Positions 3,752 through 54,754 of a stretch of 64,000 nt of DNA are shown one piece after another. Positions within the stretch are counted from its first letter, which is position 1, and every line of letters begins with the position of its first letter. The notes below the pieces were generated by a model. That model did no database searches and had not been told where the DNA came from. It saw nothing but the letters and a program-made list of their open reading frames with translations. Origin of the DNA: Harmothoe impar (Eukaryota; Annelida; Polychaeta; Phyllodocida; Polynoidae); assembly GCA_947462335.1 (NCBI GenBank), contig OX381720.1, positions 65,245,946-65,309,945 on the forward strand, in the 5' to 3' direction. Made by a program: the position numbers and the translations under genes.

Positions 3752-3777
3752 CGGGTTGTCGCGATGGCGGCCGTTTC

Positions 3778-7015: not shown

Positions 7016-10000
7016 TAGAGTTTGTCTGTTCTAGCCTGTCTGTTCTAGCCGAACTAGCGAACAGATTTACAACCCCTTGGTTGTAACGAACCGCCAGTTC
7101 TCGTTGCGCCTCCTGGAACGTATCAACTTCCCCTTGGATAGTATCATGGATAGATGGTCCGTCGATTAGAAATAGAATTCGACAGGCTTTGGAGTCATTC
7201 GTAAGCGATTGTCCGGAACCTGGGTCATTCTAGGTTCTGGTCGAGTCGACTCCCCTGTCTTTTCTAGTACTGGGTAATCGTCAGAAAATGAATCATGTTG
7301 AGCAGACTCGTCATCCTTCGAACTATGCCATACTTTTGCTGAGGCTCCATCACTCAATTCAGACGCCAATGATGATGGCCTCGAACTTCCACCAGTCCTT
7401 CCGTGCTTTTTCTATGATCGGGCCGTGGCTCTCTCGGGACCAGACTTCTTCTCTTCCCGCCCTGCAGGACTCTTGCTTGCCCTCCTATTTTCTTGGGTGG
7501 ATCACCCCGATATGCACACACCAGGGTGTACATCTCGTCTGATAGCCTAAACTTACGTTTAGCCTTCAAGAGTGCTACCCTCCCACTCAACTTTCCATTT
7601 TGTGCGTCATGCACAAAACAGAAAGCATCAGTCCTGCCGTTGATGTTCTTAAAGTCCTTGATTGTCAACATATTGAATTTAACCAGCACTTTCTCATACA
7701 ACCCAATGATTCTTTCTTTGGCAGCTGCCATGCCGGGACTATGACAGTACTTGTAGTGTCTTATCATAGTCCCTCTTCTTGGGGTAACACTCACAGGTAG
7801 CTCTATCCCTCTGCCCATCAAGATTCGCACACTTGTACACCACTGTGTGATGCATATGGCGTTCACACAAGTGTCTTACGAATCTCTTGTCCGACAAATA
7901 GGTCTTATCCGTTCCATAGTCTTCCAGACATATGGTAAACGGACAGTACCTCTTCTTTTCTTGCCGATACCAGCTCTGCAACGCCCACCACAGTTTCCAT
8001 TTCCCTGTTACAGTAGGTGTCAGGGAACTTCTTTATCTGCGCTAACCATTGCTCATAGTGGGTCGATGGAAGAGGGTCTGCGTCAGTGTCACGCAAGCAG
8101 TCTTCGTCATCACTTTCACCATTCTTATTATAAGGGTTCGGGCAGCCATACCTTTTCTTTTCCTTCTCGCATTCCTCAAAGCTGCCGGGAATAAAAAATT
8201 TAAAGTCCGCGGCACGTTCTTCCATATCTCCTTCTCTCTGCCCCTCTTTTCCACCGTCCTCCTCTACCTCCTTCTCTTCGTCTTCCATATTCGGATCCTC
8301 TTTCTCTTCCATAACAGACTGTTCAGGTTCGTCTTTCCCCTCAGGGTCGGGCTGTTCGGGTTCGTCTTTCTCATGGTCATACTCCTCCATAGCCTCTTCC
8401 CCCTTGGTATCACTCTTCCTTACCAAATCGTGTTTCTTAGATTTGTCAATAACGTTGCCCACCCCAGCGATAGCAGCTGCCTGCACCGCGACCAGATTAC
8501 CCCCATACGAAGGCGTTTCAGAATCTTTGTTTACAATTTCGGTAACCTTCTCAATCACTTTACTTGGGATGATCATTTTTAGCTAGTCTTTCCTTTCACC
8601 TTTGACTTAGGCTTAGTGCTTTTAGTATCACTGTCCCTGTCACTCTCTGTCGGTGCTCCTTTCTTGCCCTTCGGTTTCAGTAGTATATATTGTATCGGAA
8701 CGGGACTATGCTTAAGTACTGTTTATTACTCAATCGAGATGCAGCCAATCAGAGGCCTCCATTTGGTCACGTGACCGGAAGTGACCTACTTAGGGGATTA
8801 GTGGTGACGTCACGTGACCTACTTAGCCAATCAGAGGCCGCCATTTGGTCATGTGACCGGAAGTGATGTCATATGACCTACTTATGGACCGGAAGTGACG
8901 TCATATGACCTACTTAGGGGACCGGAAGTGACGTCATATGACCTAATTTAGGATCACGTGACCGGAAGTGACCTGAAGAGTCACGTGACCGGAAGTGACG
9001 TCACATGACCTAATGGACAACCGGAAGTGACGTCATGTGACCTCATTGAGGATCACGTGACCGGAAGTGACCTGATTGATCACGTGACCGGAAGTGACGT
9101 CACGCGACTTAATGAAGAGATTAGCGTCTTTAAGGGGTCACGCGCTTTAAAATGTTATATTTTTTTTTTTTGGAGGAGGCGAGTCTTATTTTTTATTAGC
9201 GACTGGAAGTGACTTATTTAACTAGGTAGAAGTGTTCTTTAGAGTGTATAAGGGGGGAGGGGGAGGGGAGGGGAGGGGGGGGAGGGGGGCCCTTTAAGAT
9301 GCATTGGGAGGGGGGCACTTTTAGGATGCATGGGGTGGGTGGGGGGGGGAGGGGGCATTCTAGGGGGGGGCACTCTAAGGGGAGTTTGTCTCTTTTAAGA
9401 AAAAAAGAAAGAAAAGATTTTTTTTTATTTTAATCAAGAGACACACTTCTTCCTCTTGAGAGGAAGAAGTGTGTCTCTTAATTTTTTTGTTTAGGAAGTG
9501 ATGGTCTTTAGGATCACGTGACCGGAAGTGACCTGATGAGTCACGTGACTAGAAGTGACATCACATGCCCTAATTAGGAGATCAGCAGCGACCGGAGGGA
9601 GTGACACTTTAACAGGACACGCGACTTAATTGTTATAATTTTTTTTTTTTTACTTACTAATAAAAGAAGACATATGAAAATAAAACACAACAATAATTTT
9701 ATTTTATTTTTTTATTTTATTTTTTTTCAATTCTAATAAACACTCTATTTTTGAAAAGATGCGCTCAATCAATCAATAACACACTTTTTTTTTTTTTTTT
9801 TTTTCATATCTCTAAAGGACTCGTTGTCACACCGTCAGAATGCACGCGATGCTTATAATACAAGTAGCGCACGCCATCTTTCTCTATGGTGTAAGTGACC
9901 ATTTTGTTTCGTACCACTTTGAAATTTCTATTTACCGCAAGGAGAGTTTTTCGTTTGCGAAGAACATCCAAGAAGTCGTTTGGTTCTTTAGGGTTTTGTT

Positions 10001-12715
10001 TCTTCTGTACACCTTTTGCACTCCATTTTTTGGATTTTCTTTCACCGGTGCCGCTGACTCAATCGTAGCAAATGTAAGTCTTAGGGTTGAGACTTAGGAT
10101 CCCATCACCTTCCCACTCCGCTTTCATAAGCCCCGAAGTTCTCAGATCGTGAAGGTAACGTCTCTCAAAACATCCGCCGGGCAGCAGACACCGTTCTCGC
10201 ACTCTTTCCGTTTTTATCTTCACGAAAAGCTCTAAGTGATCGTCGCACACCGCTGTCGGAATCCACTTTCGTTTCTCTCTGAAGTACGTCTCTCTCAGGT
10301 GAGGTTTGACTAGGTCATCCAACGTGTCACCACTGAGAGCCATGTAAAGACTGTCAGTGTCCATTTGACAAAGAGCAAAATCGCGCCGATCGACGAATCT
10401 ATCCAAAAAGTCGTATGTGAACTCTAACATTTTCAACTTTGCGTACTGGTATACCATGAACCCTATTTGAATAGGGAGGTTGTTCTTGACTGTTTTCGGT
10501 TGTAGTTCGACTTCAAACAGATCAGAACTCAACTCGGACGCCTTTTTGATGCGCCACGAATTGGCCAATAGTTCGAACATCCGACTGTCAGTGTATCTCA
10601 CCGCCGTGTGTTTTTCTTTGTTGCAGATTGTTTTACCGTACGTGGCGTTTCCCATTAACTTGTAACAGTCTGACAGAATTTTCTCGTTCTCGTTCACGTC
10701 GCCACGTCTTCGCGCCGCCGTTACTTCGTCCGCGAAACCGGCAAAGGAGCGTTTAGGTAGGTATTCTACGACCAGCTGTACTTTGGTGACTATCAAACCG
10801 TGCTCTAAATACCACTTGAGAAGTGGCGTTCCCAAGAGAATATTTTTTCCGTGGTAACTCCCTATCAGACATCTCTGAGGCGTGTTCAACAGCTTTTCTT
10901 CCTGCGCAAAGTCTGACATGTGAGGTCCTATGTCTGATTTTGAAACGGATACGTTCTTGAAAACGGGGGTCATTTCTTCGAAGTAGTCTCGTAGGTGAGG
11001 CGGCGTAGTGATGTCCACTTGAACTAAACCGAACATTTTCCCGTCTTTGACAACGGAAAGGATGTCGCTCTCGCTCATAGCGTTTCGAGACACTTTCAAA
11101 GCGTCAACCTTCCAGTGTTGTTGGGAGGCCTTAACCCGTTCATCTCGACGCTTCATCTCTCTCCATTCGCACTCCCACACGACGACCAGCTTGTAACCTA
11201 GCGCTTTCAAGTAAGCGCTTACTCTAGCCGTTCTGTCGCGTCTCTCCTCCCTTAGTGAAGCGCACTGATATCGGTGCGACGGGATTCTCTGACGAAGCAG
11301 ACCGGCCCCTCCCACCCCGGAAAGTCGGATGCGACGCTAGCCGACAAAGGGACGTGATCCCACAGCAGGGACACGTGTTCGGTCGACGGTTCTCTGCACG
11401 GTCTGAAGAAAGCCTCGAAATCGATGGTGATCTTGTAAGGGTAGATTCCGGAATGTTCTCGAATTTTGGTAGATGCCACCTACGTAGCGCAACTTGACTT
11501 GTCGGCAAGAGGAAAGCTGGTTCCTGTGTCTCTTCAGCAAGAACTCGGTGGTGAACGCCGCCTTACACTTGCAACATTCGTATATGCCCGCGTACGCGTT
11601 GAAGTCTGTGACCAGAGAGACGTGCAAACCGCCTTTCGCCTTCAGGTGTAGGTTGACTTTACCTCGGGCGGCCAGAGTTCTGGAAGGCGGTCTGATCAGA
11701 GTAACGCGTCTTCTCAACTTCCGCCCCGGCACCTGACGCGACGCGGTGTAAACCGCTATTTGTATGTCAAACAAGTTCTCTAACGCGGGTAAGTCACGGA
11801 TGTTCAAACCTGGAAAGGTTTCAGGTGTGGCAGCGGGACAGAACTGACGTAACAAATCTGAAGCGCGCTTGCTGGTGTTGTATAAGTGAAAGGAAATGCA
11901 GCGGAAGACGCAGAGGTTGTCCTTGTTGGGAAAATCTAACACACCGCTTCTCTTTCCAACTCGACCGGCCTGAGTGATCCTACCGCCTATGGGAAATTCC
12001 CCCGGTCCCATGTAAACGCAAATGTTCAAATTGGTAGGAAAAAGAACGTGCCACTTGGTGTCAGCGTCGCAAAGTTTCCGTACTTCCTCGTAAGCGACGG
12101 TGTTTTCCATTTTTGAGAGGAGCTCTTCCAAAGTTTCTGAATTAGTTATAGTAGGGAGCGGTTGTATGTGAGTTGCGTTGTTCTGGAAGGCGTGAAAGTA
12201 GCGCAGTTTGCTCTTGTCTTCTCTGTGTTCTAAGAGTAAGCCTACCGAGAAACCCACTTTGTATCTGAATCTTTGCGTGAAGTGAATGCGACGCATAGTA
12301 TCTACAGCGTCACTCAACTCGCCGGTTGATAGTCTGACGTTTGTTACACTCACGCGAGTCCCGTGCATCCTGACACCCGTTCGTATTGCAGGCCAATTCG
12401 CCGTGAACGTTTCCTCACCGTTCGGTACAGCACATATGCGCGGAGGGATAGTCACCCCGTCCAGAGATTCGCGTCGACAGGTGATCTTTCGGCAATCGCC
12501 TTCGCCGCATAGAGGGCAAAACTTAGGTATTACTCTACATTTTTCTACGTGTCTGTCGTGATTGTACGGTCTTTTAAAAATTTTGAAACACTTTTCGCAG
12601 ACGTACTGCGTCATGTTTTTTCGTTTTTTGTTTTTTCACTTAGTTACCAATTATTAAAAAAAATTAAAAAAAGTTTTTTTTGAGTTTTTTTTTCCAACTA
12701 CTTAGCCGTCTATCA

Positions 12716-12809
<94 letters not shown>

Positions 12810-14395
12810 ATATCTATCTATCTATCTATCTATCTATCTCTCTATCTATCTAACTATCTGTCTGTCTGTGTATCCGTCTGTCTGTCTCATACAGCGTACG
12901 TCAATCACTGTGTGTGTGCGCGCGTGAGCATTGAGAGTCTCTCATTCCAAATCTATACCGAGAAATTTGAGAATAATCTCTGTTTTGTCATCCAACTCTT
13001 TGAGCGCTCTGGCGTACAACGTCACCCCCTGCTGTGTGGGTTTTTTGTCAGGACCTTCGTAATTGCGCACGTTGATTAGGTTCTTACCGCTGTAGTAGCT
13101 CACAGCTGCGTACACTTCGCCCTCCTCATCCAGCACTGTGATCAAGCGGGTGTGATTAGGTCTTCCTTGCGCGGACGCTGTGTCGCGTATGCGCACCACT
13201 GCGCGGATCTCGGCGATGCGCGCTATTAGCTCGCGCAGCGCGTCGGCGGTGAAGTGCACTCGCTTGCCTCTGGTCAGAGACGCCTCTTTCACCTGGCCGT
13301 CTTTTGTGTAGCGCGGCCTCCTAGACAGTCTAGCCTCGTCCTCCCAGATCTCCAGCGTCAAAGTCCCGTCTAAGCAGAACTCTAACCCGAGAGGACGGGG
13401 GGTTTTCTCTGCTTCTTCTCGTCCATCTTCTTCTTTTTCTTGTATTTTTCTCTTCTTAGTAGGCCTTGTTGTTCTGGAACCCGCCTTAGAACGTTTCAGA
13501 CCCGCAAGAAGAGTAACACCATCAGCGTGAGCTGAATCAGCAGCAGAACCAATAACAGGAGCAGCGTCTGCGCTGGTATCCGACAATTCGTTGTTGGAAC
13601 AGGGCAGCCACACGCCGTCGGTGCTGAGTGTAGCGGTAGAAGATGAAGCGCCGCCACCCTCGTAAGGTTGTGGTGAGGGCAGTCGCCACGGACCGGACGC
13701 GCTACCAGTGGAAGTGAGGTCGAAAGTAGTGGAAGAGGGGAGCCGAAAAAACGTACCGTCCACCCGTAGCCCTTCGGGTTCGTCGTACGCCTCGTCGTCA
13801 GCGTCGTTCTCTGTCTCACCCTGTTGCTGCTGCTCCTCCTCCTCCTCCTCCTCCTCCTCTTCTTCTTCTTGCTTTAGGGCATATATGTCTACTACGCGCT
13901 GCTGGGGCTTAGTGTCCGAATAGCTGTAAGTCTCAGCGTGCGTTGATGGCGTCGGTTGATGTAGTGGTGGAGAGGTGCTGTGCAACGTGCAGCGGTTCAT
14001 CAAAATCAGCAACAGTAGTGGGCAGGTAAAAACCCGGTTGCCAGTACTGCGCTGTGCCAGGAGAGTTGTCGTCAGTAGTAGTAGCGGCAGCAGCAGCAGC
14101 AGCAGCAGGCGCAGCAGTAGCAGGCGCAGCAGCCTCAGCAGGCGCAGCAGTAGCAGGCGCAGCAGTAGCAGGCGCAGCAGTAGCAGGCCCAGCAGTAGCA
14201 GGCGCAGCAGCAGCAGTAGCACGAAGAGCACCAGCAGCACGAGGATCACCAGCACCAGCAGCAGCAGCACGAGCAGCAGCAGCAGCAGCAGCAGGCGGGG
14301 CAGCAGTAGCAGCGGCAGCGCGCTTAGCAGCAACAACCGTCGCGAGTGTAACAACGTCGCTACCACGACGACTACTACCAGTAGTACTGCTACTA

Positions 14396-14448
<53 letters not shown>

Positions 14449-17400
14449 GCTGCGAGCGCTCGCTACAGCGGGAGGATGATAAGACCAAGCGGTTGCGGCG
14501 GTAGTCTCATCTTCAGTAGCAAGAGGAGACGCTGACGCTAAACGAGCGCTGTTCCGCCGCCGCCGCCGCTGCCGCCACCGCCGCCGCCAAGACGAGACGA
14601 GATGAGTGGTCAAGCTATTCCACTTTCAATCTCGCCTTCACCCCCTTGTCCGCCTGAAAAATTACTGCGGCTTCACGACATGAGACGCGCGGTGCAGGCC
14701 GATGGGGAGAGTAGAGAGGTAAGACAGCAGCGCTTAGCATATAGGGACGCCTTGCTTCGTCAACTAGGTAAAGAGTTGAGCGGCTCTTGGAGAGTGTTGG
14801 GCAGTAGCTTAAAAGTTACCGCCGCCCGTATGGATGCTCTAGTAGAGCGCAGTGTCAAGACACCGGAGGAGCTGTGTACGGCGATGTTCCGAGCTTGGTG
14901 GGTTGAAACCCAGCATCGTCATAGATGGGGAGAGCTCGGCCGCGTCTTCACCCGCATTAGACGAGTGGAACTGTTGGCTCAGTGGATGACCCTTCTCCAC
15001 AGGCAGGGGTTGGATTTCGAGAACCCCGACTCGCACGTGATGCATAAGCACTTGGGCGCCCTTGGCAGACGCCTAGGTAGCAGGTGGAAAGGGGTTGGGG
15101 GACATTTAAAAATGTCGCCTGAGAAGTTAGATAAGATCGCTGAAGAATGCGAATGCGGAGGAAGTCCCGCTGAGTGGGCCTTCCAAGTGTTGAAAATGTG
15201 GCAAGCTGAAGCTGACAGTGCCGGCAGTACACCTTTTGAACTCCTTCGAGTGTTGACTGAGGACATGGGAAAGTTTGACCTCGGCATCACGATATTACTT
15301 GACTTTATCAAGCAAGAAACAACGACGAGAACAACGGACGTGTGAATTGTTGTGTTTTATTTTCATACGTCTTCTTTTATTAGTAAGTAAAAAAAAAAAA
15401 AATTATAACAATTAAGTCGCGTGTCCTCTTAAAGTGTCACTTCCTCCGGTCGCTGCTGATCTCCTAATTAGGGCATGTGACGTCACTTCTAGTCACGTGA
15501 CTCATCAGGTCACTTCCGGTCACGTGATCCTAAAGACCTTCACTTCCTAAACAAAAAAATTAAGAGACACACTTCTTCCTCTCAAGAGGAAGAAGTGTGT
15601 CTCTTGATTAAAATAAAAAAAAATCTTTTCTTTCTTTTTTTCTTAAAAGAGACAAACTCCCCTTAGAGTGCCCCCCCCCTAGAGTGCCCCCCTCCCCCCC
15701 CCCCCACCCACCCCATGCATCCTAAAAGTGCCCCCCTCCCCATGCATCTTAAAGGAGGTCACATGACGTCACTACCGGTTGTCCATTAGGTCATGTGACG
15801 TCACTTCCTGTCACGTGACTCATCAGGTCATTTCCGGTCACGTGATCCTAAATTAGGTCATATGACGTCACTTCTGGTCCCCTAAGTAGGTCATATGACG
15901 TCACTTCCGGTCCATAAGTAGGTCATATGACGTCACTTCCGGTCACGTGACCAAATGGCGGCCTCTGATTGGCTAAGTAGGTCACGTGACGTCACCACTA
16001 ATCCCCTAAGTAGGTCACTTCCGGTCACGTGACCAAATGGAGGCCTCTGATTGGCTGCATCTCGATTGAGTAATAAACAGTACTTAAGCATAGTCCCGTG
16101 ACGATACAATATAGACTACTGGTTTCCTTCCTGTTTTGTTCTTTCGAATACTCGCCAACCGCTCTTTCTGTTCAGCGGCAGTCGGCTCAGAATATTTTTC
16201 CCCACACGTACACTTTTGTAGCATACGTTCCTTCTCGGATCATTTCCTCACATTTGCTCATTCGTTGTAATAATTCCTTCCTTTTCAGTGTATACAGGCG
16301 AGGAGCTCGGGCAAGACTTGCCAACTCCTCCCAATCCTCCCTACAACTGGGCATTTAAACCTTTTCGGGTTCGCGGAAGAGCACATCTGCTTCGATGTCC
16401 CCCCCTGTAATGCCCATTCTTTCTTTATCGTCCATTGGTGGTTACAGAGTGGCCAGCCTTTTCTGTCGATACGCCACATCACAGTCGATCATGGCTCACC
16501 TCAGTCCCTGATGCACCTGTAGTCCAGCCTCCATGTCTTTGAAAAACAACAACTAGTTCGCAGGCAGGCTGGCATACTCCTTCCGAGATAAAAATTCTCG
16601 TATACAATCTTGAACTTCCTGACCCATACGCCTTGCGGCAGCATCAGGCTTTCGGACTTTCAATAATAGTGCGTGAATATGGACTTCTCGTCCATCGTAC
16701 CGCGAGAGGAACCCGTCCATATTAGGTTTGTCCAGCATCGTCACCACCCGTTTAGGTCTTTACTTATACACACTGGGCTACTCCAAGGACTGGTACTGGG
16801 AGTGATTACTCCCTCTGCCAACATCTTCGAAATCTCCTCCTCTGCTACTATTTTCTTTGCGAGGGGTAACCGGCGATAAGGTATCTTGACAGGGATGGCT
16901 CCCTCCGTATTAATGGAATGTAGGACCACATTCTGTCAACATCTTTCTTAGAGCCATTCTCTGATCTTCCGTCTCCATCCCTGCCTGTTCTATTAACTTT
17001 TCCACTCCTTCATCCACCTCACAATCCATCTTCAAATCGGATACCCTTTCAAAACTACTGGTGACCGCCTCCGCAAATGTCACTTCCCCTATGACAGTGC
17101 CTTTTGGTAGGTAAATTCTTTTCGAACCCGGGTTTGTGATGGGGGCCACACCCCAGGCAATATTCCCGATGAGCGTTTCTGCCGATTCCAACCCCCTTCT
17201 TTCCAATTCCGCCACATTCGGTTCGAATACCCAGGGATCACCTCTTTTAATCCTACTCGAGGCGATAAGCACTTAACAGGCCATACCCGGAGGTATTTTT
17301 ACCGTCTGTACCACACTGGTTACTCCACTTATCTCCTGCGCTAAGCACTGCACTTTAGCTCTGTAGGGATTGGCTAGTTTTAATTCGCCTGTGACAGGAT

Positions 17401-44680: not shown

Positions 44681-44743
44681 ATAATTTCTTTTCTTTTCAT
44701 TTTATTCTTTATTTTCATTTCAATCAAAAAAAAACACACAAGT

Positions 44744-44914: not shown

Positions 44915-44940
44915 GAAACGGCCGCCATCGCAACAACCCG

Positions 44941-45393: not shown

Positions 45394-45422
45394 ACGATAC
45401 GCCAAGTACCGCCGTCTTGTCT

Positions 45423-46730
45423 TCAGTTCATGTGGTAGTCGGTGATGGGGTGTCGATCTCGGGTCAGCTCGACGACGTTGTCGTACACCAAGTAGAGTAG
45501 CACCATTGTTGTCGCTTGTAGCGCCGAGTGGAAACTGACTTCCACCCTCAGCTGACCCGCTCTTATAAGGTTCACGCGACACCCGTCGTGCGATCTGTCT
45601 GGGGTTAAGTCGAGGGGGAACACTGTGTAACCGTTCAGGAATTGATCGTATGAAATACCGCAGGAGCGCGCGCCCTCGTACATCCCCGTTTCCGTGTGTA
45701 GCGCCAAGTACTCTCTCACGGCCGCTTTGGTCTTAAAGTCGGGCACGTAGGCGTCGTTCGGCACTTTCTGATCGTTCACTATCACTTGAAGCGAGCTGAT
45801 GTCGTAATGCTTCATCTCGAACGGGTTCTTGGTGTAGCTACCGTTGAAGGCGTCGTGGTCCAGGAAGCAAATCATCATCGACTTGGGAAGCTGGCCTGTG
45901 TTGGAGTGCGTGTAGCTGTGATCTCTGTTACCTTGAGGGATGGCGTACGTCGTCACCTCCACTCTGTTCACCGGGTAGTCGAAGGGCCCGTGTTCTATCA
46001 CCGCTCTCTCGTGCGTTTCCGCTACAGCGTCCGCCACCAGCAGGCGTCGCACGTAGAGCTTTGCTTTGTAGATCTTCAAGCTGTAGCCTCCGTCAGCAGC
46101 GCACATCAGATAGAAAGAGGGCGCCGCCTGTTTCAGAGTGAGATTGATTTCTGTCTCTCCAACGATGAGCTTCGGTTGATGAGCCAGGTCAAAGTGCAGT
46201 CGCGCCATCAGCGAAAAGCGCTTGTTGGAGATTAGCTTCTTGCGCGCTTTGTACCCCGCATTCGCGTCAGTCAACGTGTCAAACTGACCGGGCGTATCTT
46301 CATGCCATCCCTGGGCGCTCATGACGCCGTCCTTCACGTCTTTGTTGTAGTTGAGTAACCCTTCCAAGTAAGCTCGGTAAGGGTAGGTCTCGGTGTTGCC
46401 AGACACTTTGAAACCGCCGATGGAGACTTGGACGTCTTCGAAGAGCGAGTGAGCCAAGTTGTTCACCGGAGCTACCGCGTCGGTGTCCTCGATCGCCGCT
46501 CCGTTCGCTTTCAGCACTTGACATTCCAGATGAAGGTAATTCTCGTTCAGGTCTGTGTACTCTTGCGACTTGTTGATGGTGAAATTTATGTTACCTCCAT
46601 CCTCTAAAGAGTTTTTTGTTTCTATCCCCAGGAAAGACGACTTTAAGATAGTAGTCTGAGTCGGCGCTACGGTGTGCAGGTCGAGCTCAGAGAGCGCGCA
46701 CTCGTTACTGCTCTCGTGTACGTAAGCCAT
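45423..46730 (-). CDS. Polinton major capsid protein, intact (435 aa)
   Basis: This is the major capsid protein of Polintons/adintoviruses, a double-jelly-roll protein that forms trimeric hexons. The length of 435 residues is usual for the compact members. The N-terminal part (S-S-F-L-G-I-E-T-K-N-S and I-N-F-T-I-N-K-S) and the middle block ending in L-N-Y-N-K-D are typical of this family, which often appears in invertebrate gene sets as an uncharacterised protein. The gene has its own TATA-type promoter at 46781-46794 and is followed by the protease. Copy A is frameshifted at the corresponding codon 331. Confidence 0.93.
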   Translation of the reverse strand: MAYVHESSNECALSELDLHTVAPTQTTILKSSFLGIETKNSLEDGGNINFTINKSQEYTDLNENYLHLECQVLKANGAAIEDTDAVAPVNNLAHSLFEDVQVSIGGFKVSGNTETYPYRAYLEGLLNYNKDVKDGVMSAQGWHEDTPGQFDTLTDANAGYKARKKLISNKRFSLMARLHFDLAHQPKLIVGETEINLTLKQAAPSFYLMCAADGGYSLKIYKAKLYVRRLLVADAVAETHERAVIEHGPFDYPVNRVEVTTYAIPQGNRDHSYTHSNTGQLPKSMMICFLDHDAFNGSYTKNPFEMKHYDISSLQVIVNDQKVPNDAYVPDFKTKAAVREYLALHTETGMYEGARSCGISYDQFLNGYTVFPLDLTPDRSHDGCRVNLIRAGQLRVEVSFHSALQATTMVLLYLVYDNVVELTRDRHPITDYHMN

Positions 46731-46780
46731 TGTGTTCTCTCTTCACGCGGCCGACAGACTGACGCCGGCCGCCTCCAGTC

Positions 46781-46794
46781 TTTTTATTTATACC
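46781..46794 (-). promoter_or_regulatory. TATA-type promoter of the major capsid gene
   Basis: TATAAATAAAAAG on the minus strand, about 50 bases before the capsid ATG, as in copy A (1920-1932). The ATPase upstream region has the related AATAAAAAGG at 51847-51856. Confidence 0.6.
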
Positions 46795-46809
46795 TGAACG
46801 CCTAGGCGC

Positions 46810-47235
46810 TTACGGGTCGAATACATCCCCTCTACGTCTCTTGCAAGAGCCACCGCCCGTCTGAGGAGAATGCCGGCGACGTTTCGACCCTTTCTTAGAC
46901 GTGACAGTCGTCTTTCCTCCCGAGAACGCCGTACTCGCCAGTCTCTTCAGAGCGCCTGCGCCTCGGTCTTTCACGCTGCTCTTTCAAGTCCGACCCGCCA
47001 GCACATCTTTAGCTACGCCCACACCGGCGCGGAGCAGCGTTTTTCCCACCGACTTCAATAGCGGGGTAGCCGAGCGCATCAGACCTAACAGAGCGCCGCC
47101 CAAACCGTGCCCGCTCTGGAAAGAGCGCCCGCTGTACACGTTGATGCCGTTGCCCAGCTGCGCGTTGTAGTAATCGCTGTACCCTCTGCCGACGGTGCGC
47201 CTGGGTGGAAAGTACGGAACGCGTTGACGCATCAT
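46810..47235 (-). pseudogene. pX/pVI-like basic virion protein with premature stop
   Basis: It aligns with the 141-residue protein at 1477-1902. A TGA at 46984-46986 replaces the TTA (Leu) codon of copy A after residue 83. The remaining frame stays open to the normal stop at 46810-46812. The lost part is the Lys/Arg-rich tail. The gene starts 12 bases after the minor capsid stop. Confidence 0.85.
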
Positions 47236-47246
47236 TTTTCTCTCTT

Positions 47247-48365
47247 TCAGCGCTCAATAGGTCTCAGATGAAGTGTCACGGTCACCTCGCCTCTACCGAA
47301 TGGGATGGAATGACCGGATCGGTCTCTTAAATAGATGCCGACCTCGGTAAACCTCTTGGATTTCAAGGGGAAATAATCCAAATGGGGAAAACTGATAGCT
47401 TGCACGCTACCTCGACGCTTTCCGCCTCTGTCCACCGCGACGCAGCGCAACAGCGGCACTTGCATGTCGCCCACACGTCTCTCCTGGATCATGTCGGTGT
47501 ATATGTACACAGAGTGCACGTCCCCGTAAACATCCATCGAGTAGGCGCCGGTAGTCGGCGATGCGAAACACGTCTTCTCTCCGAAGCCTAGAACACATGC
47601 GAGATGCTGAGTCAGCAGGACAGCGCAGTGTCTCGGCGGTTTGATGGTGACGCGTTTCGTGTTGGCGTCGTACGATAAGATCCGCATCGGTTTGAGCAAG
47701 AAGCTAGAGCCCTCTAGTCTGTCATCTCGCATCGTCTCACTCAAGCGCTCGACTAGGGTGTGGTTGCTTCCGGTGAAAATAGGAGGTATCTGGAATATGT
47801 TTGGCATGAAACTGCGCACTCCCATGTCTTTCTCCATCTCTTCGATCATCTGTCTTGCTTGATCGCTGATCGCCTTCTTCTTCACCGCCGGGGACAAGAA
47901 CTGCTTGTATACGGCATTCGTCTGTCTCAAGTCGACCTCTCTCTTGAACCTTTTTGTTTCCGGTTTCAATCGCTGCTCTTCCGACGTGTCTGATATCTCT
48001 TCCACCGTTACATAGCTCGCTTCCTTCCAGCTCAGCGGGTATTTTGAGCTGAACGTCAGCTTGCTCAGACCGTTCGCGTTTTTCATTCCCCTCCAGTCTA
48101 CCTGTGGTTTTCTTCCTTCGGCGAATTTAATTTCTTTTAAAACGTTGATCGCCTCCTCTAGCGAACCCTTGGTGCGCAGAGGAACAACGAAGATCAAGTC
48201 GTCGTCGTGCACGTTAGTCCATTCTGTAGGGAGGATGATCTCAGTCAGAGCCGCTTCGTACGCTTCGGGCAGAAGGAGCGGCGAGTCGAAGTGAGTTCGG
48301 AAAGACGTCAAGCTGTTGTCAGGATAATACTCCATAGAGCTGTTGCTAGGTAGAGTGATGTTCAT
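47247..48365 (-). CDS. Polinton minor capsid (penton-like) protein, intact (372 aa)
   Basis: The start ATG at 48365 comes directly after an A-rich stretch, as in copy A. The N-terminus (N-I-T-L-P-S-N-S-S-M-E-Y-Y-P-D-N) and the following L-T-E-I-I-L-P block are characteristic of the Polinton/adintovirus minor capsid protein. Role in the family: vertices of the icosahedral capsid. It lies between integrase and the pX-like gene. It is full length here, while copy A has a frameshift near the C-terminus. Confidence 0.88.
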   Translation of the reverse strand: MNITLPSNSSMEYYPDNSLTSFRTHFDSPLLLPEAYEAALTEIILPTEWTNVHDDDLIFVVPLRTKGSLEEAINVLKEIKFAEGRKPQVDWRGMKNANGLSKLTFSSKYPLSWKEASYVTVEEISDTSEEQRLKPETKRFKREVDLRQTNAVYKQFLSPAVKKKAISDQARQMIEEMEKDMGVRSFMPNIFQIPPIFTGSNHTLVERLSETMRDDRLEGSSFLLKPMRILSYDANTKRVTIKPPRHCAVLLTQHLACVLGFGEKTCFASPTTGAYSMDVYGDVHSVYIYTDMIQERRVGDMQVPLLRCVAVDRGGKRRGSVQAISFPHLDYFPLKSKRFTEVGIYLRDRSGHSIPFGRGEVTVTLHLRPIER

Positions 48366-48388
48366 TTTTTTTATTTTTTATTTTTTAT

Positions 48389-49525
48389 CTACGTTATTTT
48401 TTTGACGGGGATCCACTCGTTGAACTTGTCGTCGTAACCTAACCAACGTACGAAAGCTAACTCTTTACCGTCGACGGTCTTGCGGCGCAACACCTCGTCT
48501 ATCAGGTAGTTGTTGTCGTAACGACTCTTCTTCACCTTCTGAACCTCTTCCGGGTAGAAGACGCCTTTTATCTCCTAGCCCTTGTCGTCTTTCAGCTCGA
48601 ACCCTCTGCTTCCCAACGTCTTAGCAACGTCGACCACTTCCTCGCGCCAGTTTCCCTCGTACCCTTTGTCGAAGGCGCCTTTAGTTCTCAACATCCTCAC
48701 TCTGTCACCCGGAGCGATGACGTCGACGGCGGACGTCTTTGTTTTTTTCTTCTTTTTCCATAATTCGTCGATTTGTTTGTTAGTTGGGAGATCTTGTCGG
48801 TAGAAAACTGTTTTGCTGTTTTCCGAGCTGACTTGAGCCGGCGCCATTTTCAACGTCTTGTGGTGAGTGCGATTGTAAGAAGACACTACATGGTGCAGTA
48901 CGTCTACGTAGCGATACGTGCGCTTGTGTGTGAAATAACGCCACAGCTTCTCCTTCAGACTGCGGTTCAAGCGCTCCACTAGACTAGCTTTGATGTCGTC
49001 GTTCTCGCCAGTGAAGAACTCTATGCCCTCGCTCTTCAAGTGATCTTGAAAGATCTTGTTCAAAAACTCTTTCCCCTTGTCTGTCTGAACAGTGCGCGGT
49101 CGTCTCTCGCCAGTGCCTGTCATCTCTCGGAAGGCCTCGGTGACATCAGCGCCGCTCTTGGATTTAATGGGAACGGCCCACGCGTACCTAGAGAAAACGT
49201 GGATCGCCGTCACCACGTACCGGAAGCGGTCGTTGTGAGACGCCAAAGCTTGCATGTCCATCAGATCTATCTGCCACTGCTGATCGATTGCGCCGGTTAT
49301 AGTCTTGTTCCTTGCGAATTTTCTCCGAATGGGTTTATGTTTAGTGTAGGCGTCCAGCGACACTAAAGCATCTCGGATGACGGCCGGGTTTAGGTGGCGA
49401 AAATGATGTTTCTGGAGTTTAGTCACGCTAGTGAAACTGGAGGGCGCTTTGACGTCGGTATATCTAGCTACTATGCGCTTCTTTTCTTTTTCCTTCTTGG
49501 TCAGTCTCTTCACTGGTTTGCCCAT
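48389..49525 (-). pseudogene. Polinton retroviral-type integrase (DD35E) truncated before the chromodomain
   Basis: The catalytic core is complete, with Asp87 (Q-I-D-L), Asp149 (Q-T-D-K-G-K-E-F) and Glu184 (L-V-E-R-L-N-R-S), the last two 35 residues apart. A TAG at 48575-48577 replaces the GAG of copy A, cutting the protein at 316 of 378 residues and removing the C-terminal chromodomain, which is still readable to 48389. Role in the family: cutting target DNA with 6-bp stagger and joining the element ends. The start overlaps the end of the upstream 390-residue gene by 16 bases. Confidence 0.92.
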
Positions 49526-50682
49526 GGTGGGCCTGTTGAGGGCGTGAACGACGACCTCGCCGCTAGGCGGTTGCGCCCTTTCCTTTTCTTACTCGCCACG
49601 CTCCTATAGGAAGTCGGAGTTTGGAAAAGTTCACTGTCCTCCTCGTCGTCAGAGGATGGATCGTCCACCTGGAGAGAAGAGTCTGCTGCTGCTACTGCTG
49701 CTGCTGCTGCTGCTTCTCCTTCTTCCGAGTGGAAGCTCGGTCGTTTCCGACCTCTGTCAGCGAGCCGTGTGTCTAAGCTTTGGCCAGGTCCGCTCGCTTT
49801 ATACAGATGGTTTCCGATCAAGGAGTCTGTGGGAACTGCTTTGCGCAGCGCTTTCGTGAACGGAGAGTAGCCCGCCGGTCTGGGCGCCGTCTTCCTGAAC
49901 CTGGCGGCGTCGTTCAGTAAGTCCACTATGTTGATGCGATGCTCAGGTGGTATTCTCCGACCCGACATCTCGCGCACCGCACGGTCCTCGTTCCACTTGA
50001 TCACACCGGATTTCTCCAAATGTTTGTACAGCGCCACGGTCCGGGTGCGATTCCTCTTGGGAACTTGGTTCGCCAACCGCTCAAGTAGGGACGCGCTGGC
50101 CTCTTCAGCAGACTGACGGAGGTGAGCCGGGGGAGAAGAAGAGTAGGACAAAGAGATGTTGCTGTTGTGGGGATTCGCGAGAAAAAATTGCAATCTATTC
50201 AACAACCTTCGGTATTTCAACATTTTCTCGCGCGATTCCAAAGTGGGATCGTTAAACACTAAGTCCAAGTCCCTGTAGATAAACTGTAGCACCTGGTGCA
50301 AGGCCGCGTCGGGATGAAGGGACTGTTCTGCCTGCTTGTGGTAATAGGCCATGTCGGCAGGTAGGCGGGCGGCGGTGGCAGGAGCGGAACTCTCGTTCTT
50401 TTCAGTGCGCTCATCAGGAAGAGGAGGAAGGTTTGGAGCAGTAGAAGTACTAGCAGCAGCGACTGCAGTAGTAGCAGCGCTAGTAGTAGCAGCAGCGGGC
50501 ACATGATGAAGTAGACCTGCTCGTGATGATTTGTAGAGCGTCTCAGGATCCACGAGCGCTAAGCGTTTGTAGTGTTGTTGCTGCTCTGAGTCCGTCATGG
50601 GGACGACGGTGGCAATGACGCTGGTGGTGGCGGTAGTGGTGGTGGTGCTGTCGGCGAGTAGGTGTCGAATGAGGTGTCTCAT
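49510..50682 (-). CDS. Conserved Polinton/adintovirus protein of unknown function (390 aa)
   Basis: The N-terminal ~110 residues are low-complexity Thr/Ala-rich. The middle is helical. The block G-V-I-K-W-N-E followed by N-I-V-D-L-L-N-D-A and P-A-G-Y-S-P-F is the conserved signature of a protein commonly found next to integrase in Polintons. The C-terminus is acidic and then Lys/Arg-rich (K-K-R-K-G-R). Its ATG overlaps the stop of the 110-residue gene (ATGA) and its end overlaps the integrase start, so the three are probably co-expressed. The function is not known. Confidence 0.75.
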   Translation of the reverse strand: MRHLIRHLLADSTTTTTATTSVIATVVPMTDSEQQQHYKRLALVDPETLYKSSRAGLLHHVPAAATTSAATTAVAAASTSTAPNLPPLPDERTEKNESSAPATAARLPADMAYYHKQAEQSLHPDAALHQVLQFIYRDLDLVFNDPTLESREKMLKYRRLLNRLQFFLANPHNSNISLSYSSSPPAHLRQSAEEASASLLERLANQVPKRNRTRTVALYKHLEKSGVIKWNEDRAVREMSGRRIPPEHRINIVDLLNDAARFRKTAPRPAGYSPFTKALRKAVPTDSLIGNHLYKASGPGQSLDTRLADRGRKRPSFHSEEGEAAAAAAVAAADSSLQVDDPSSDDEEDSELFQTPTSYRSVASKKRKGRNRLAARSSFTPSTGPPWANQ

Positions 50683-51011
50683 ATACGGAGAATGCTCTTT
50701 ATAAGCGGTAAGGCCATCCCTATGAGAGCCGGAATGAGGAAACCTCCCTCTTGTACCAAGACGCGTCTCTTTTTTTTGATGGGCGTAGATTTTTTGCCGA
50801 CCTCCCTCAACACGTCAGCCGATTCTCGAAGCTTGTCCAGTTGTTTGTCGCTGAGCGGGATGTTCCCTACCAGTAAATTGTGACAGATCTCACTCAACGC
50901 TGCGATCAGATCGTCGCTTCCAGAGTCTATTAGATGCGAGCAGTCCTTTGGCGAGCACTTAGCTAAGTGCTTGAGAGTACCAAAGTGTCTTTCGAGTAGA
51001 TGAGAAGACAT
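50679..51011 (-). CDS. Small conserved Polinton protein with hydrophobic GGFL tail (110 aa)
   Basis: A helical N-terminal half with a short block N-L-L-V-G-N-I-P-L-S is followed by K-K-K-R-R and then E-G-G-F-L-I-P-A-L-I-G, a hydrophobic tail that could insert in a membrane. Proteins of this design are common beside the packaging ATPase in Polintons, but I cannot give a function. The start ATG at 51011 is preceded by an A-rich stretch, and the stop overlaps the next ATG by four bases. Confidence 0.65.
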   Translation of the reverse strand: MSSHLLERHFGTLKHLAKCSPKDCSHLIDSGSDDLIAALSEICHNLLVGNIPLSDKQLDKLRESADVLREVGKKSTPIKKKRRVLVQEGGFLIPALIGMALPLIKSILRI

Positions 51012-51016
51012 TTTTG

Positions 51017-51757
51017 CTACTGCTTTCTCTTGTTCTTTTTTTTGTCTAGCGGTACGAACACTAGCTGAGAGTGTATGGACGTCAAAGAGGAGCGTATTCT
51101 CAGATCGTCAGGTGTTGACTGCTTGAAGTCCAGAAGGAGGTATGAGTGAGGTCGCTTGAGTTCATGGGTAAATATACTAGAGAGGGCCGCCGCGTTGGAC
51201 GGAAACACCTGGCGAGACAGACTAGCTATTTGCCCCATGTCGCGCGGGTTCTTGAAAACGATCATGTAGTGAGCGTTCAGACTCATAGTTCGAAAGTCGG
51301 GTGATTTCTGGAATAGGTTCTGAGTGATGTATATGACGCTCACGTTCCAGTGATGCGAGTATTTAGTAAAGATGTCGGCTACCACTTGCTGATTGGAACT
51401 GCTCATCAGATCGTCCAATATCAGTAGAGTGTGGGGTCGTAAGGCGTCTTCTGCTACTTCCACGTCTCCCGCTATAGTCTCTTTGCTAGGAAGACCTTCT
51501 CTGAATTCCACACCGTACTGATTTTGCATTTTTTCAAACAGAGGTTGCCACTCGCCGTAATGGTAAAAAGTCTTTTCCACCGGCGGCGTGACCAAATTGT
51601 TCACGTCGCTCAGAAATTGATCCACCAAGCGCGTTTTTCTACAACCCGACGGACCGCTAATGATACAACTAAAGGGTCCTTGTAGTCGAGCGTCGAAATG
51701 AATTTCTGTGAAAAGTTTGCTTCTACTGCTCGACTTTTTTTTTTTTTTTTTCAGCAC
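51017..51757 (-). CDS. FtsK/HerA-type genome packaging ATPase (no ATG found)
   Basis: Walker A is G-P-S-G-C-R-K-T (residues 35-42 of the open frame) and Walker B is L-L-I-L-D-D (111-116), followed by an Asn/Gln-rich sensor region and I-T-Q-N, as in the A32/FtsK-HerA ATPases of Polintons that package DNA into capsids. The open frame starts at GTG. No ATG in any useful position lies between the promoter-like AATAAAAAGG at 51847 and the coding region. Instead a run of about 19 A residues occupies the place where the other genes have their ATG. The start codon may have been lost in this copy. Confidence 0.85.
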   Translation of the reverse strand: MLKKKKKKSSSRSKLFTEIHFDARLQGPFSCIISGPSGCRKTRLVDQFLSDVNNLVTPPVEKTFYHYGEWQPLFEKMQNQYGVEFREGLPSKETIAGDVEVAEDALRPHTLLILDDLMSSSNQQVVADIFTKYSHHWNVSVIYITQNLFQKSPDFRTMSLNAHYMIVFKNPRDMGQIASLSRQVFPSNAAALSSIFTHELKRPHSYLLLDFKQSTPDDLRIRSSLTSIHSQLVFVPLDKKKNKRKQ

Positions 51758-51846
51758 GCGTGAGAGAGCGGTTGTGTGTCTGACTGTCTGCTGTGTTTCT
51801 CACTCGAACGGTCGGTAGTGAATGGTTGTGGAGAAAAGTCCGCCGA

Positions 51847-51856
51847 CCTTTTTATT
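51847..51856 (-). promoter_or_regulatory. Promoter-like AATAAAAAGG upstream of the ATPase
   Basis: It shares AATAAAAAG and the following GC-rich GGCGG with the major capsid promoter (46781-46794), about 90 bases before the ATPase frame. The function is inferred. Confidence 0.4.
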
Positions 51857-51995
51857 GATTCCGGCCGGTGTCACAGTAGCGGCGGCAGAAGTGTCTTTTT
51901 TTTTCTTTTATTTTTTGCGATAAAATTCTATTTTCACTCAATAGTCATAAATACAATGGAGTCTGATACAAATATTTATTATTTTTTTTAAAAAG

Positions 51996-52100
51996 AAGAG
52001 GGAGAGGAGGAGGAGGAGGAGGAGGAGGAGGAGGAGGAGGAGGAGGAGGAGGAGGAGGAGGAGGAGGAGATTAATTTTTTTTTTTTTTTTTTTTTTTTGA
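51996..52100. repeat. (GGA)n and poly-T tracts
   Basis: About 24 GGA units are followed by a T run of about 26. They lie downstream of the 52390 ORF on the minus strand. Confidence 0.9.
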
Positions 52101-52390
52101 TCATTTAGGCAAAGCTCGTCGCTTTTTTTTCTATTTCTGTGTTGTGACACGATCGTCTCGAAAAAGCAATAAGGCGTGTGAGCGCGGCGGTGACAAATAC
52201 ATATTGGAGCGTATGGTTTAAAATAGTGCGTCCCTATCTTCTTCAATTCGGCTGCGTTGCAATATGCGGGATAACAAGTGACGACGTCGAAACGTTTAGA
52301 GACCGTGTTCACGTCGGCCACAACGCACGCCCACCGAGTGGGAGCTGCAGTCGCTCCCAAGAAACCGATCGGCTTGTCGAATCGTTTCAT
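52080..52390 (-). CDS. Unrecognised Cys/His-containing ORF in element B (about 100 aa)
   Basis: From the ATG at 52390 a non-repetitive sequence of about 100 residues includes W-A-C-V-V, V-T-C-Y-P-A-Y-C and I-C-I-C-H-R-R, then runs into poly-Lys and poly-Leu coded by the T and GGA tracts, so its true end is unclear. A TATAAAG lies just upstream (52405-52411). It is unlike any protein I know. It could be an early or accessory gene. Confidence 0.4.
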
Positions 52391-53474
52391 AGCACTTATT
52401 CTCACTTTATAAGAGGAGGCAGGGTGAGGAGAGTAGCGGCACTCTTTCTTTTCATGAAACGCCCAACGAGTGGGGGCGCTGAGAGCGGCTGTTATGCAAT
52501 GGTAGAGTAAATACTGTTCTGAGAAGACGGCTCTCGGCCATGTCGCTACGTTTTACTTTTCCGCTCTTGTATAACGACGATGGCGCTCAGCTTTGCATTT
52601 CTCGAGAATTCAGTACGCTTCAAGAGATGCGTGAACCTCAACTAAGTGACGCTCTCTCCTTTGAGATAAAAAAATAGCCGGGCAGTTGAGGAGGGCACTT
52701 TGTTCGCGCGACTGTCTTTTAGAAACTCGCGCCCTCTGCAGCGCCATATTTCTTTCCTCCGAAACAAAAAAGACTGAGTGAAAATAAAAATTTTAAAAAA
52801 CAAAAAGCTCAAAGAAAAAAAATAAGCAATAAGCAGACTCAGCTCGAAATTCCCTGCTGGCGTGATGGCGGTGACTGCAGGCGGTGGCGGCGGTCGGCTG
52901 GCCGGCGGTGGCGGTGTCGGCGGCGATGGTAGAAGGGTGTGTGGAAAGAGAGACGCATCTAAGTCTTTTATAGGATCGGCGAGTCTGACATTTTCAGCTG
53001 TCGCATGCTGACCTGCTGCTATCATAAGAGAAACAAAAGCCCTAATCACGCTTTTCAGCTGGATCCTTCCACCCCGCCAAACATGGATCCAGATGGGAAG
53101 GTGGTTTAAAATAAAATCCGTGTACCGACTGTCATACAATAGAGTAATTAGTTGAACGCGTGTTACCTGTATAAAGGATTAGCGGGTCATGGGCTCAGCG
53201 TGTGTATAGAAAAACAACTACAGGTAGCGTGAACAAAGCGACCCCCTCCCTTTCTGTCACTCTGTCTGTGACTAGAGGGTGCGCGTGTGGTAAGCGGCTT
53301 AAATCTAAAGAAAAACAAATCACCCTCTCCTGTCGTCAGCAGTCAGCCGGCCGGCGGCTGGAAAATGCGATTAGAGGGATGATGAGCCGCGTAGTAAGCG
53401 ACTTAAGGCTGATCTAAAGACCTGCCGTGAGGGGGCAGCTGGCCGGTGGCTTGAAAAAAAGGGGGGAGTAAGGG

Positions 53475-53482
53475 TATATAAG
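53475..53482 (+). promoter_or_regulatory. TATA box for the alanine-rich gene
   Basis: TATATAAG followed by a G run lies about 150 bases before the chosen ATG at 53635. It is the only strong plus-strand TATA in this part of element B. Confidence 0.55.
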
Positions 53483-53535
53483 GGGGAGTGAAACCGTATT
53501 CGGCATCGTCATCATCGTTCACGCTACTACTACTA

Positions 53536-53583
<48 letters not shown>

Positions 53584-53634
53584 GCACCGCGCCTCAATTT
53601 GCAGATCCCCATATTGGAAAGTTGCTACCGTGAC

Positions 53635-54246
53635 ATGAAGCGGAATGACGAAGCGGCGCGTGAATGTGAAGCTGATGCTGTAGCCTCTGCTACTGCTGCT
53701 GCTAGTGCTGCTCAGCGTGCTACTGCTGCATTTACTGCGGCTGTTAGTGACGCTGGTTGTGATGACGTTGTTGTTGTTGCCGCTGCGGCTGTGACTGCTG
53801 CTGTTGCTGCCGCCGATGCAGCTACTCATGCCACCGATGCCGACGCTGCTGCTGCTGATGCTGTTGCGGCTGCCGATGTCGCCGCTGATAACGCTGCTAG
53901 TGCCCGCTCTGCCGCCCTTGCTACTATCGCTGCTGCTGTTGTTGCTAATGCTCACGCTACTGCTGCTACCGCTGCTGCTGCTGCTGCTACCGCTGCTGCC
54001 GAGGCTGCTGCCGCTGCTGCCGATGCTGCTGCCGATGCTGCCGATGCTGCTGATGCTGCTGATGTTAGCAGTCGCGTCGACAAAGAATCGTCATTTGTCA
54101 CTCTTAAACCTCCAGTTGAACGCGCGACGAGTAGTAGGGCTACCAACGCAACGGCCGGATGGTGCAAATGGTGTCGTCGCTTCTGCTCGTGCGCTTGCTT
54201 TGCTTCCAGTCCTACCTGCTGCTGCTACGGTATGATAGTGTTATAG
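53635..54246 (+). CDS. Alanine-rich repetitive protein of element B (203 aa)
   Basis: The start at 53635 was chosen because the upstream in-frame Met (53488) is only six bases from the TATA box and is followed by a leucine run from a (CTA)n repeat. The protein has a charged start (M-K-R-N-D-E-A-A-R-E-C-E), then about 140 residues dominated by Ala with regular Asp and Thr, which should form a long helix, and a Cys/Trp-rich C-terminus (W-C-K-W-C-R-R-F-C-S-C). It is transcribed towards the right TIR, in the opposite direction to all other element B genes. I do not recognise it; a fibre-like or core role is possible. Confidence 0.45.
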   Translation: MKRNDEAARECEADAVASATAAASAAQRATAAFTAAVSDAGCDDVVVVAAAAVTAAVAAADAATHATDADAAAADAVAAADVAADNAASARSAALATIAAAVVANAHATAATAAAAAATAAAEAAAAAADAAADAADAADAADVSSRVDKESSFVTLKPPVERATSSRATNATAGWCKWCRRFCSCACFASSPTCCCYGMIVL

Positions 54247-54333
54247 TGTTTGAATGAGAACGCGCGTAGTTACACATAGACGCTGTAACAGATGTGCTTT
54301 TTTTTGAAAATATAATTTTAACATAACATGGAA

Positions 54334-54754
54334 CTTGTTGTGTTTATTTTCTATATATAAGTTGTTTGTTTACAAACAGTCACGTGTCACGTGGTGTTGT
54401 TTACAAACAAGAGAGCCACGTGGTGTTGTTTACAAACAAAACCCTAAGTAGGTCACGTTACCCTAGTTACCAGAATGCCGGCTTCTGATTGGCTGAGCCT
54501 AAGTAGGTCACGTGACGTAAGTAGGTCACGTTACCATGGTTACCAGAATGCCGGCCTCTGATTGGCTGAGAGCTTCTAAGTAGGTCAGTAGGTCACCCAG
54601 AATGCTGGCTTCTGATTGGCTGAGAGCCCTAAGTAGGTCACGTTACCATGGCAACGGGTCACGTGACCAAATGGCGGCCTCTGATTGGCTGCATATCGAT
54701 TGAGTAATAAACAGTAGTTAACTATAGTCCCGTTCCGATACATACTATACTACT
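54334..54754 (-). repeat. Right terminal inverted repeat of element B
   Basis: Reverse complement of 44241-44680 with few changes. It ends ...CATACTATACTACT. Confidence 0.93.

What the first reader, a model, noticed from the sequence alone, without database searches (positions are those of the whole stretch)
8679..54754. A Polinton/adintovirus genome split over two elements: polymerase on one, integrase and virion genes on the other
Seen: element C (8679-16120) has the only DNA polymerase B and no integrase, ATPase, capsid or protease. Element B (44241-54754) has all of those and no polymerase. Each has its own matched long TIRs and an exact 6-bp target duplication, so neither is a fragment cut by the assembly. 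Copy A shows the same right-hand gene order as B. Known: canonical Polintons carry pPolB and integrase together, and bidnaviruses are a precedent for a bipartite genome with pPolB. Inferred: B and C are two segments of one virus lineage that complement each other. The alternative, that C is a non-autonomous passenger, is weakened by its distinct TIR and its own gene set.
Basis: partly seen in the sequence, partly recalled or inferred. Interest (0 to 1): 0.96.

Follow-up and report, generated by a model that had tools for sequence, protein, structure and literature searches.

The report
Polinton split into complementary mobile segments
In this probably animal genome a virus-like mobile element has its copying gene and its integration-and-shell genes on two separate DNA units that share the same ends, present in thousands of copies with satellite units, which suggests a segmented form of a virus family known with one-piece genomes.

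Summary
B (10.5 kb: integrase, protease, ATPase-like, capsid-type genes) and C (polymerase side) are separate elements, each with exact 6-bp target duplications. The window's own C is a deletion copy with a dead polymerase, but complete C units of 9.0-9.2 kb elsewhere in the host genome have open 1,377-1,380-codon polymerase frames and no B gene. B and C share only their outermost ~86-99 nt.

The terminus occurs 7,798 + 7,800 times. Class words give 1,580 B and 2,834 C copies, and three further classes share the ends: E (1,031), F (609), G (998). Of 39 sampled terminus pairs 37 are 8.7-10.5 kb. B and C have equal median divergence (2.27%, 2.29%) and show no linkage on the contig tested. No unit with both polymerase and integrase was found in the samples. 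The nearest relatives outside (~50% identity) appear, by matching contig lengths, to carry both genes on one 12.7-17.6 kb contig.

Best reading: a Polinton/adintovirus lineage split into mutually dependent units, B supplying integrase and capsid, C polymerase, with E, F and G as satellites. Packaging into particles is inferred, not shown.

The parts
44241..54754 (.). Element B, integrase/virion unit, 10,514 bp
   Evidence: TIRs and exact TSD TCCATC
44235..44240 (.). TSD of B, left
54755..54760 (.). TSD of B, right
44241..44680 (+). B left TIR; outermost ~86-99 nt shared with C, E, F, G
54334..54754 (-). B right TIR
44941..45582 (-). adenovirus-type protease
   Evidence: Pfam Peptidase_C5 21.9 bits, cut-off 21.3
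45423..46730 (-). major-capsid-type protein, 435 aa
   Evidence: 26 homologues; 24% homologue beside the polymerase of another Polinton in the same genome. The name MCP is recalled; no Pfam or PDB hit
46984..47235 (-). 83-aa ORF, 83 of 83 codons aligned in copy A
47247..48365 (-). 372-aa ORF, minor-capsid (penton) position; name inferred from order only
48575..49525 (-). rve integrase, 316 aa here (378 aa in relative P0039)
   Evidence: Pfam rve 2.7e-12; 126 scored genome copies at 99-100%
49510..50682 (-). 390-aa ORF of unknown function
50679..51011 (-). 110-aa ORF
51017..51757 (-). packaging-ATPase-like protein
   Evidence: Pfam Pox_A32 0.0012, Adeno_IVa2 0.0016, both below cut-off
8679..16120 (.). 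Element C, polymerase unit, internally deleted copy, 7,442 bp
   Evidence: TIRs, exact TSD GGTTTC; complete relatives L041, L042
8673..8678 (.). TSD of C, left
16121..16126 (.). TSD of C, right
8679..9694 (+). C left TIR blocks
15346..16120 (-). C right TIR blocks
11337..12614 (-). N-terminal piece of protein-primed-type DNA polymerase B
10059..11315 (-). C-terminal piece of the polymerase
12942..14438 (-). PC4-like (ssDNA-binding type) protein, weak match
   Evidence: Pfam PC4 18.9 bits, cut-off 25
14602..15345 (+). Death-domain protein, 247 aa
   Evidence: Pfam Death 1.4e-7
1..4446 (.). Copy A: the part of a second B-type element that lies in the window
   Evidence: 97.4% to 44241-48716
63030..63072 (+). 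Further terminus (D); no other blastn match of 60 nt or more between 63027-64000 and the window

Best explanation
A Polinton/adintovirus lineage in this host has a divided genome. Unit B (about 10.5 kb) encodes integrase, an ATPase-like protein, protease and capsid-type proteins. Unit C (about 9-9.8 kb) encodes the protein-primed-type DNA polymerase, a PC4-like protein and a Death-domain protein. Shown: separate units, near-identical AGTAGT termini, 6-bp TSDs, high copy numbers, equal median divergence of sampled copies, pN/pS below 1 for both enzymes, no unit with both enzymes in the samples. Inferred: C's polymerase starts copying at the shared terminus of all units; B's integrase inserts all of them; capsids made from B package units of about 9-10.5 kb, so each core unit spreads only with the other. 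E, F and G share the ends and the length but not the gene set, and behave as satellites. The confidence is for the split into mutually dependent units; about 0.42 of it goes with particles.
For: 7,798 + 7,800 copies of the terminus (up to 2 mismatches), control 0. Of 39 adjacent terminus pairs from the first 100 exact places, 37 are 8,728-10,537 bp; classes B 10, C 11, E 9, F or F-like 7, G 2. The ten B are 10,419-10,537 bp, which leaves no room for the polymerase. Exact 6-bp TSDs in 7 of 7 complete elements checked. Word counts: B 1,580, C 2,834. Median pairwise divergence B 2.27% (45 pairs), C 2.29% (55 pairs). pN/pS: polymerase N part 0.26-0.50, integrase N part 0.25 over 10 copies. B and C words on C1 are not detectably linked: 5 of 74 B within 20 kb of a C (2.6 expected by rotation, 95% 0-7), 11 within 50 kb (6.1, 1-13); by coordinates the closest pair is a C inserted inside a B. 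Six longer units, sampled at two or three points each, show no polymerase-integrase combination. Outside relatives: polymerase and integrase hits share contig lengths 17,632, 16,628 and 12,657. Control: another Polinton in the same genome has polymerase and capsid-type gene side by side.
Against: No virion, transcript or extrachromosomal DNA was examined. Classes E, F and G spread without an intact core gene set, so C too could be a passenger that kept its polymerase. Sampled E and F copies are as young or younger (E 1.3%, F 0.9%), and two G centres are 99.1% alike. Copy numbers of B and C differ 1.8-fold. Class words leave about 750 terminus pairs unassigned, where a rare one-piece unit could hide. 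Relatives were not found in viral contigs. MCP and penton names rest on neighbourhood, not structure. Copy A's capsid-type gene is itself frame-broken (335 of 435 codons align in one frame).
Confidence: 0.72

Rival explanations
1. A one-piece helper (about 17 kb, exogenous or very rare in this assembly) supplies everything; B, C, E, F and G are all deletion or replacement derivatives that it mobilises.
For: The nearest outside relatives seem to be one-piece, on contigs up to 17,632 bp. G is a derivative of C whose polymerase is reduced to remnants. About 750 terminus pairs are not covered by the class words.
Against: No one-piece unit among 39 terminus pairs or in the sampled stretches of six longer units and no B-C linkage on C1. 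The class words sum to 7,052 against about 7,799 terminus pairs. C's polymerase and B's integrase both show pN/pS well below 1, not expected of pure passengers of another helper.
Confidence: 0.17
2. A split transposon rather than a virus: B and C complement inside germ cells but no particles form; capsid genes are relics or act only within the cell. (This is the particle-free part of the best explanation, not an addition to it.)
For: Huge copy number in one genome; no viral contig found; copy A's capsid-type gene is frame-broken.
Against: Aligned capsid-type codons of A versus B show pN/pS 0.40 (435-aa gene, 335 codons) and 0.54 (372-aa gene, 356 codons); 26 homologues of the capsid-type protein exist; unit lengths stay narrow even in units without the core genes.
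Confidence: 0.3
3. C is an independent polymerase-bearing satellite that parasitises B, while B itself replicates with a polymerase from unrelated Polintons in the same genome.
For: Other polymerase families with long open frames (up to 1,567 aa) exist in the genome (L106).
Against: No B/C-type terminus lies in the stretches held of the eight loci of one other polymerase family (1.5-kb flanks) or in the 9.5 kb of L106, though their own ends may lie further out; B and C termini are nearly identical.
Confidence: 0.08

Closest known systems
Polinton/Maverick (Eupolintoviridae), vertebrate Mavericks of PMC8097293
   Same: 6-bp TSD, (AGT)2//(ACT)2 end motif, TIRs, rve integrase, protein-primed-type polymerase, protease, ATPase-like and capsid-type genes, narrow size range
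   Different: There one unit of about 17 kb carries all genes, with a mean of 22 and a highest figure of 287 copies in the passages seen; here the genes are split over units of 9-10.5 kb, with about 7,800 units
Adintoviruses and other meldviruses (PMC11071296, 12 of 14 passages)
   Same: polymerase, integrase and hexon-type lineage; relatives at 50-54% mostly have an rve plus chromodomain integrase. That paper also notes genomes with adenovirus-class virion proteins that lack recognisable PolB and integrase
   Different: adintoviruses are defined with polymerase, integrase and hexon; in the passages seen segments are described for bidna-class parvoviruses, not for adintoviruses
Bidnaviridae (PMC4061559, 12 of 19 passages)
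   Same: two linear segments with conserved terminal structure and a protein-primed polymerase of Polinton origin, packed in separate capsids
   Different: ssDNA, parvovirus-type capsid, SF3 helicase, 6.5 and 6 kb; no integrase (recalled)
Polydnaviruses of parasitoid wasps (recalled; named in the listings and passages)
   Same: many proviral segments in an animal genome
   Different: circular packaged DNA, other gene families, domesticated by the host (recalled); not tested here

Membership tests
Polinton/Maverick | polymerase and integrase inside one TIR pair | tested here: not met
   39 terminus pairs, sampled stretches of six longer units, and 74 B against 94 C places on C1; not an exhaustive scan
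Polinton/Maverick | 6-bp target duplication | tested here: met
   7 of 7 complete elements
Polinton/Maverick | AGTAGT end motif and TIRs | tested here: met
Polinton/Maverick | rve integrase and adenovirus-type protease | tested here: met
Polinton/Maverick | double-jelly-roll capsid protein | tested here: inconclusive
   homologous to the protein beside another Polinton polymerase; no PDB hit; structure tool off
Polinton/Maverick | size about 15-20 kb | tested here: not met
   37 of 39 pairs 8.7-10.5 kb; the two longer ones are enlarged E units
Adintovirus | integrase with C-terminal chromodomain | tested here: inconclusive
   relatives at 50-54% mostly carry PF00385; the 99% relative is annotated with PF00665 only; the window frame is cut short
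Bidnaviridae | parvovirus-type capsid and SF3 helicase | tested here: not met
   no parvovirus match; only a sub-threshold RNA_helicase (PF00910) match, E 0.08, in the ATPase-like ORF
Segmented virus | segments share termini but differ inside | tested here: met
   86-nt identity table and control
Segmented virus | segments packaged in particles and needed together | not testable with these tools
   no virion or expression data

The most novel reading that the evidence does not exclude
A multipartite, integrating dsDNA virus of the Polinton/adenovirus branch: polymerase unit and capsid/integrase unit packaged separately in equal-sized capsids, with satellite segments of the same length (one with Death-domain and unknown genes, two almost non-coding), which together have occupied about 4-5% of a host genome.
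Probability: 0.42. Interest if true: 0.96.

Novelty: new variant of a known kind. Interest (0 to 1): 0.91.

Why it matters
Polintons are treated as self-synthesising one-piece elements. A stable split of the polymerase from the integrase and capsid genes, in well over a thousand copies each with matched ends and matched divergence, would be the first segmented member of that branch I know of (recalled; the searches named in Tried and rejected showed none). It would show how a bidnavirus-like bipartite state can arise, and it offers a natural test of whether Polintons depend on particles: the length limit on gene-poor satellite units is hard to explain without packaging.

Tried and rejected
Rejected: (1) B and C as halves of one broken element: each has its own TSD and TIRs and they show no linkage on C1. 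(2) C as an intact functional copy in this window: it is a deletion copy. (3) Longer terminus pairs as one-piece genomes: the 13.2 and 15.9 kb pairs on C1 and the 15.5 kb pair on C2 hold E pieces, the 17.2, 20.7 and 21.9 kb pairs hold C pieces; some sampled stretches in them matched nothing, and none matched B. They were sampled, not read whole; pairs of 24.3 and 29.1 kb were not sampled. (4) Unit-length public contigs (10,510; 9,882; 9,859) as proof of virions: high-copy repeats can collapse to unit-length contigs in assembly, and P0039 carries the mark used for proteins the window encodes. (5) TAA-type ends as a B/C co-variation test: of 11 TAA-type units sampled, 9 gave C, 1 E, 1 nothing (a twelfth, L062, is C), so no matching B was seen; this may be class-specific and does not support co-variation. 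(6) E as a third coding segment: its 438-aa frame has pN/pS 0.73 over 7 copies, weak.

Led nowhere: viral-contig scans with integrase, polymerase piece, terminus, and polymerase and integrase alignments; PDB sequence search with the capsid alignment and the 372-aa protein; PHROGs, which named only the integrase; a guess at the host for a literature search (0 papers). Literature searches for a bipartite, multipartite or segmented Polinton, polintovirus or adintovirus (listings; passages) showed no description of one; the Starrett 2021 adintovirus paper is not held.

Limits: classes were assigned from the first 100 exact termini on one contig; two of seven F assignments rest on short partial matches; counts use 31-nt words with up to 2 mismatches chosen from few copies; one locus (L025) carries both the C and the G word, so class sums can double-count. 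That the host is an animal is inferred.
Full report
What is in the window. B (44241-54754) and C (8679-16120) are complete, separately inserted elements with inverted repeats and exact 6-bp duplications. B holds an rve integrase, an adenovirus-type protease, an ATPase-like protein and capsid-type genes on one strand. C holds two pieces of a type-B polymerase, a weakly PC4-like protein and a Death-domain gene. Copy A is 97.4% identical to B's left 4.5 kb. The window's C polymerase is broken: compared with open copies, roughly residues 388-876 are missing or out of frame (coordinates). The window alone therefore could not decide between a segment and a dead passenger.

Complete C units exist. 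The polymerase N-terminal piece has at least 99 scored relatives in the host genome (7,726 first-look candidates); by hand count 27 of the 99 have an open frame of 1,300 aa or more. L041 and L042 are whole C units of 9,029 and 9,180 bp with exact TSDs GTTGCC and TCTACC, open 1,380- and 1,377-codon polymerase frames, PC4-like and Death-like genes (the Death gene of L041 in two frames), and no tblastn match to any B protein.

Census. The 31-nt terminus occurs 7,798 times forward and 7,800 times reverse (up to 2 mismatches), the reversed control 0 times. The first 100 listed places, all exact and on C1, give 39 adjacent inward-facing pairs; 37 measure 8,728-10,537 bp. Central 700-bp stretches of all 39 were read, with extra stretches for the two long ones (E word): B 10 (10,419-10,537 bp), C 11, E 9 (two of these enlarged to 13.2 and 15.9 kb), F or F-like 7 (two by short partial matches only), G 2. 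Class words, up to 2 mismatches: B 1,580, C 2,834, F 609, E 1,031, G 998; the sum is 7,052 against about 7,799 terminus pairs. At 9.4-10.5 kb each this is about 69 Mb, 4.5% of 1,512 Mb (my arithmetic).

The units share ends, not insides. Among 12 ends from all classes the outer 86 nt agree at 78-86 positions. Positions 101-200 agree at 18-31 of 100 for every pair of classes except F and G (99 of 100). This is the pattern of segments, or of satellites with a helper. The AGTAGT tip is the commonest vertebrate Maverick end motif and is expected to serve jumping-back in protein-primed replication (PMC8097293, passages).

No one-piece unit in the samples. Among exact words on C1:0-99.3 Mb, 5 of 74 B places have a C place within 20 kb (rotations 2.6, 95% 0-7) and 11 within 50 kb (6.1, 1-13). 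By coordinates the nearest pair is a C unit inserted inside a B unit: outer minus inner length is 10,529 bp, a normal B; the junctions were not read. In the earlier protein searches no listed polymerase place lay within 29 kb of a listed integrase place (99 by 126). As a control, L106 from the same genome is another Polinton with a 1,493-aa polymerase frame about 300 bp from a capsid-type gene.

Same age, both conserved. Median pairwise divergence of the central stretches is 2.27% in B (45 pairs) and 2.29% in C (55 pairs); E 1.3% (25 pairs), F 0.9% (6 pairs). pN/pS is 0.26-0.50 for the polymerase N part, 0.25 for the integrase N part, and 0.40 and 0.54 for two capsid-type genes, A versus B, although A's 435-aa gene is frame-broken (335 of 435 codons aligned). 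Some mobilised lineage thus keeps both enzymes working.

Satellites. E (L083, TSD CCCTGG) has 401-nt tandem repeats and one 438-aa frame. F (L084, TSD AACGTC) has no ATG frame over 104 aa. G (L105, TSD CATGTA) is a C derivative: its polymerase is reduced to remnants without a frame of 150 aa, it carries a 525-aa fusion of the N part of the PC4-like protein with Death domains and two inverted copies of a 283-285-aa gene, and its left end is F-like; it is still 9,786 bp. Gene-poor units that keep a length of 9-10 kb argue for a length limit such as packaging (inference; PMC8097293 makes a similar argument for 17-kb Mavericks).

Origin of the split. Polymerase relatives: 95%, 77% and 65% identity on contigs of at most 9,882 bp, then 47-50% on contigs of 17,632, 16,628 and 12,657 bp, then 42-44%. 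Integrase relatives: 99-69% on contigs of at most 10,510 bp, then 50-54%, among them contigs of 16,628, 17,632 and 12,657 bp (120 of 248 hits listed). Equal lengths suggest the same contigs, so this neighbouring group seems one-piece. In the polymerase tree (12 rows) that group is sister to the split group. In the integrase tree (21 of the listed hits) both groups are separate clades, but their order relative to a third clade is unresolved. Support for the four clades is 98-100% SH-aLRT. I could not read those contigs.

Verdict. It needs two changes: the window's C is not itself functional, and the system is two core units plus satellites. Whether it is a virus with particles remains open.

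Noticed in passing
A2 profile positions 867-931: The polymerase family has a stretch that matches Vsr-type mismatch endonucleases (1odg, 7.4e-6), as if a nuclease-like fold is inserted in the polymerase.
   Followed up: no
L105 1529-2386 and 7262-8113: The G unit carries two inverted copies of an unknown 283-285-aa gene, pN/pS 0.58 between them; no Pfam match for the one copy scanned.
   Followed up: partly
L084: F units of about 9.4 kb are nearly non-coding, yet sampled copies are about 99% alike and the F word has 609 places.
   Followed up: partly
L025: One polymerase locus carries both the C word and the G word, a possible C/G recombinant.
   Followed up: no
G000 C1:3023555-3043628: By coordinates, a C unit inserted inside a B unit.
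   Followed up: partly
window 60669-62336: 555-aa reverse transcriptase ORF (RVT_1 1.7e-37).
   Followed up: no
window 28455-28830: 47-nt tandem repeat array.
   Followed up: no
window 63030-64000: Terminus D is followed by sequence without a blastn match of 60 nt or more elsewhere in the window.
   Followed up: no
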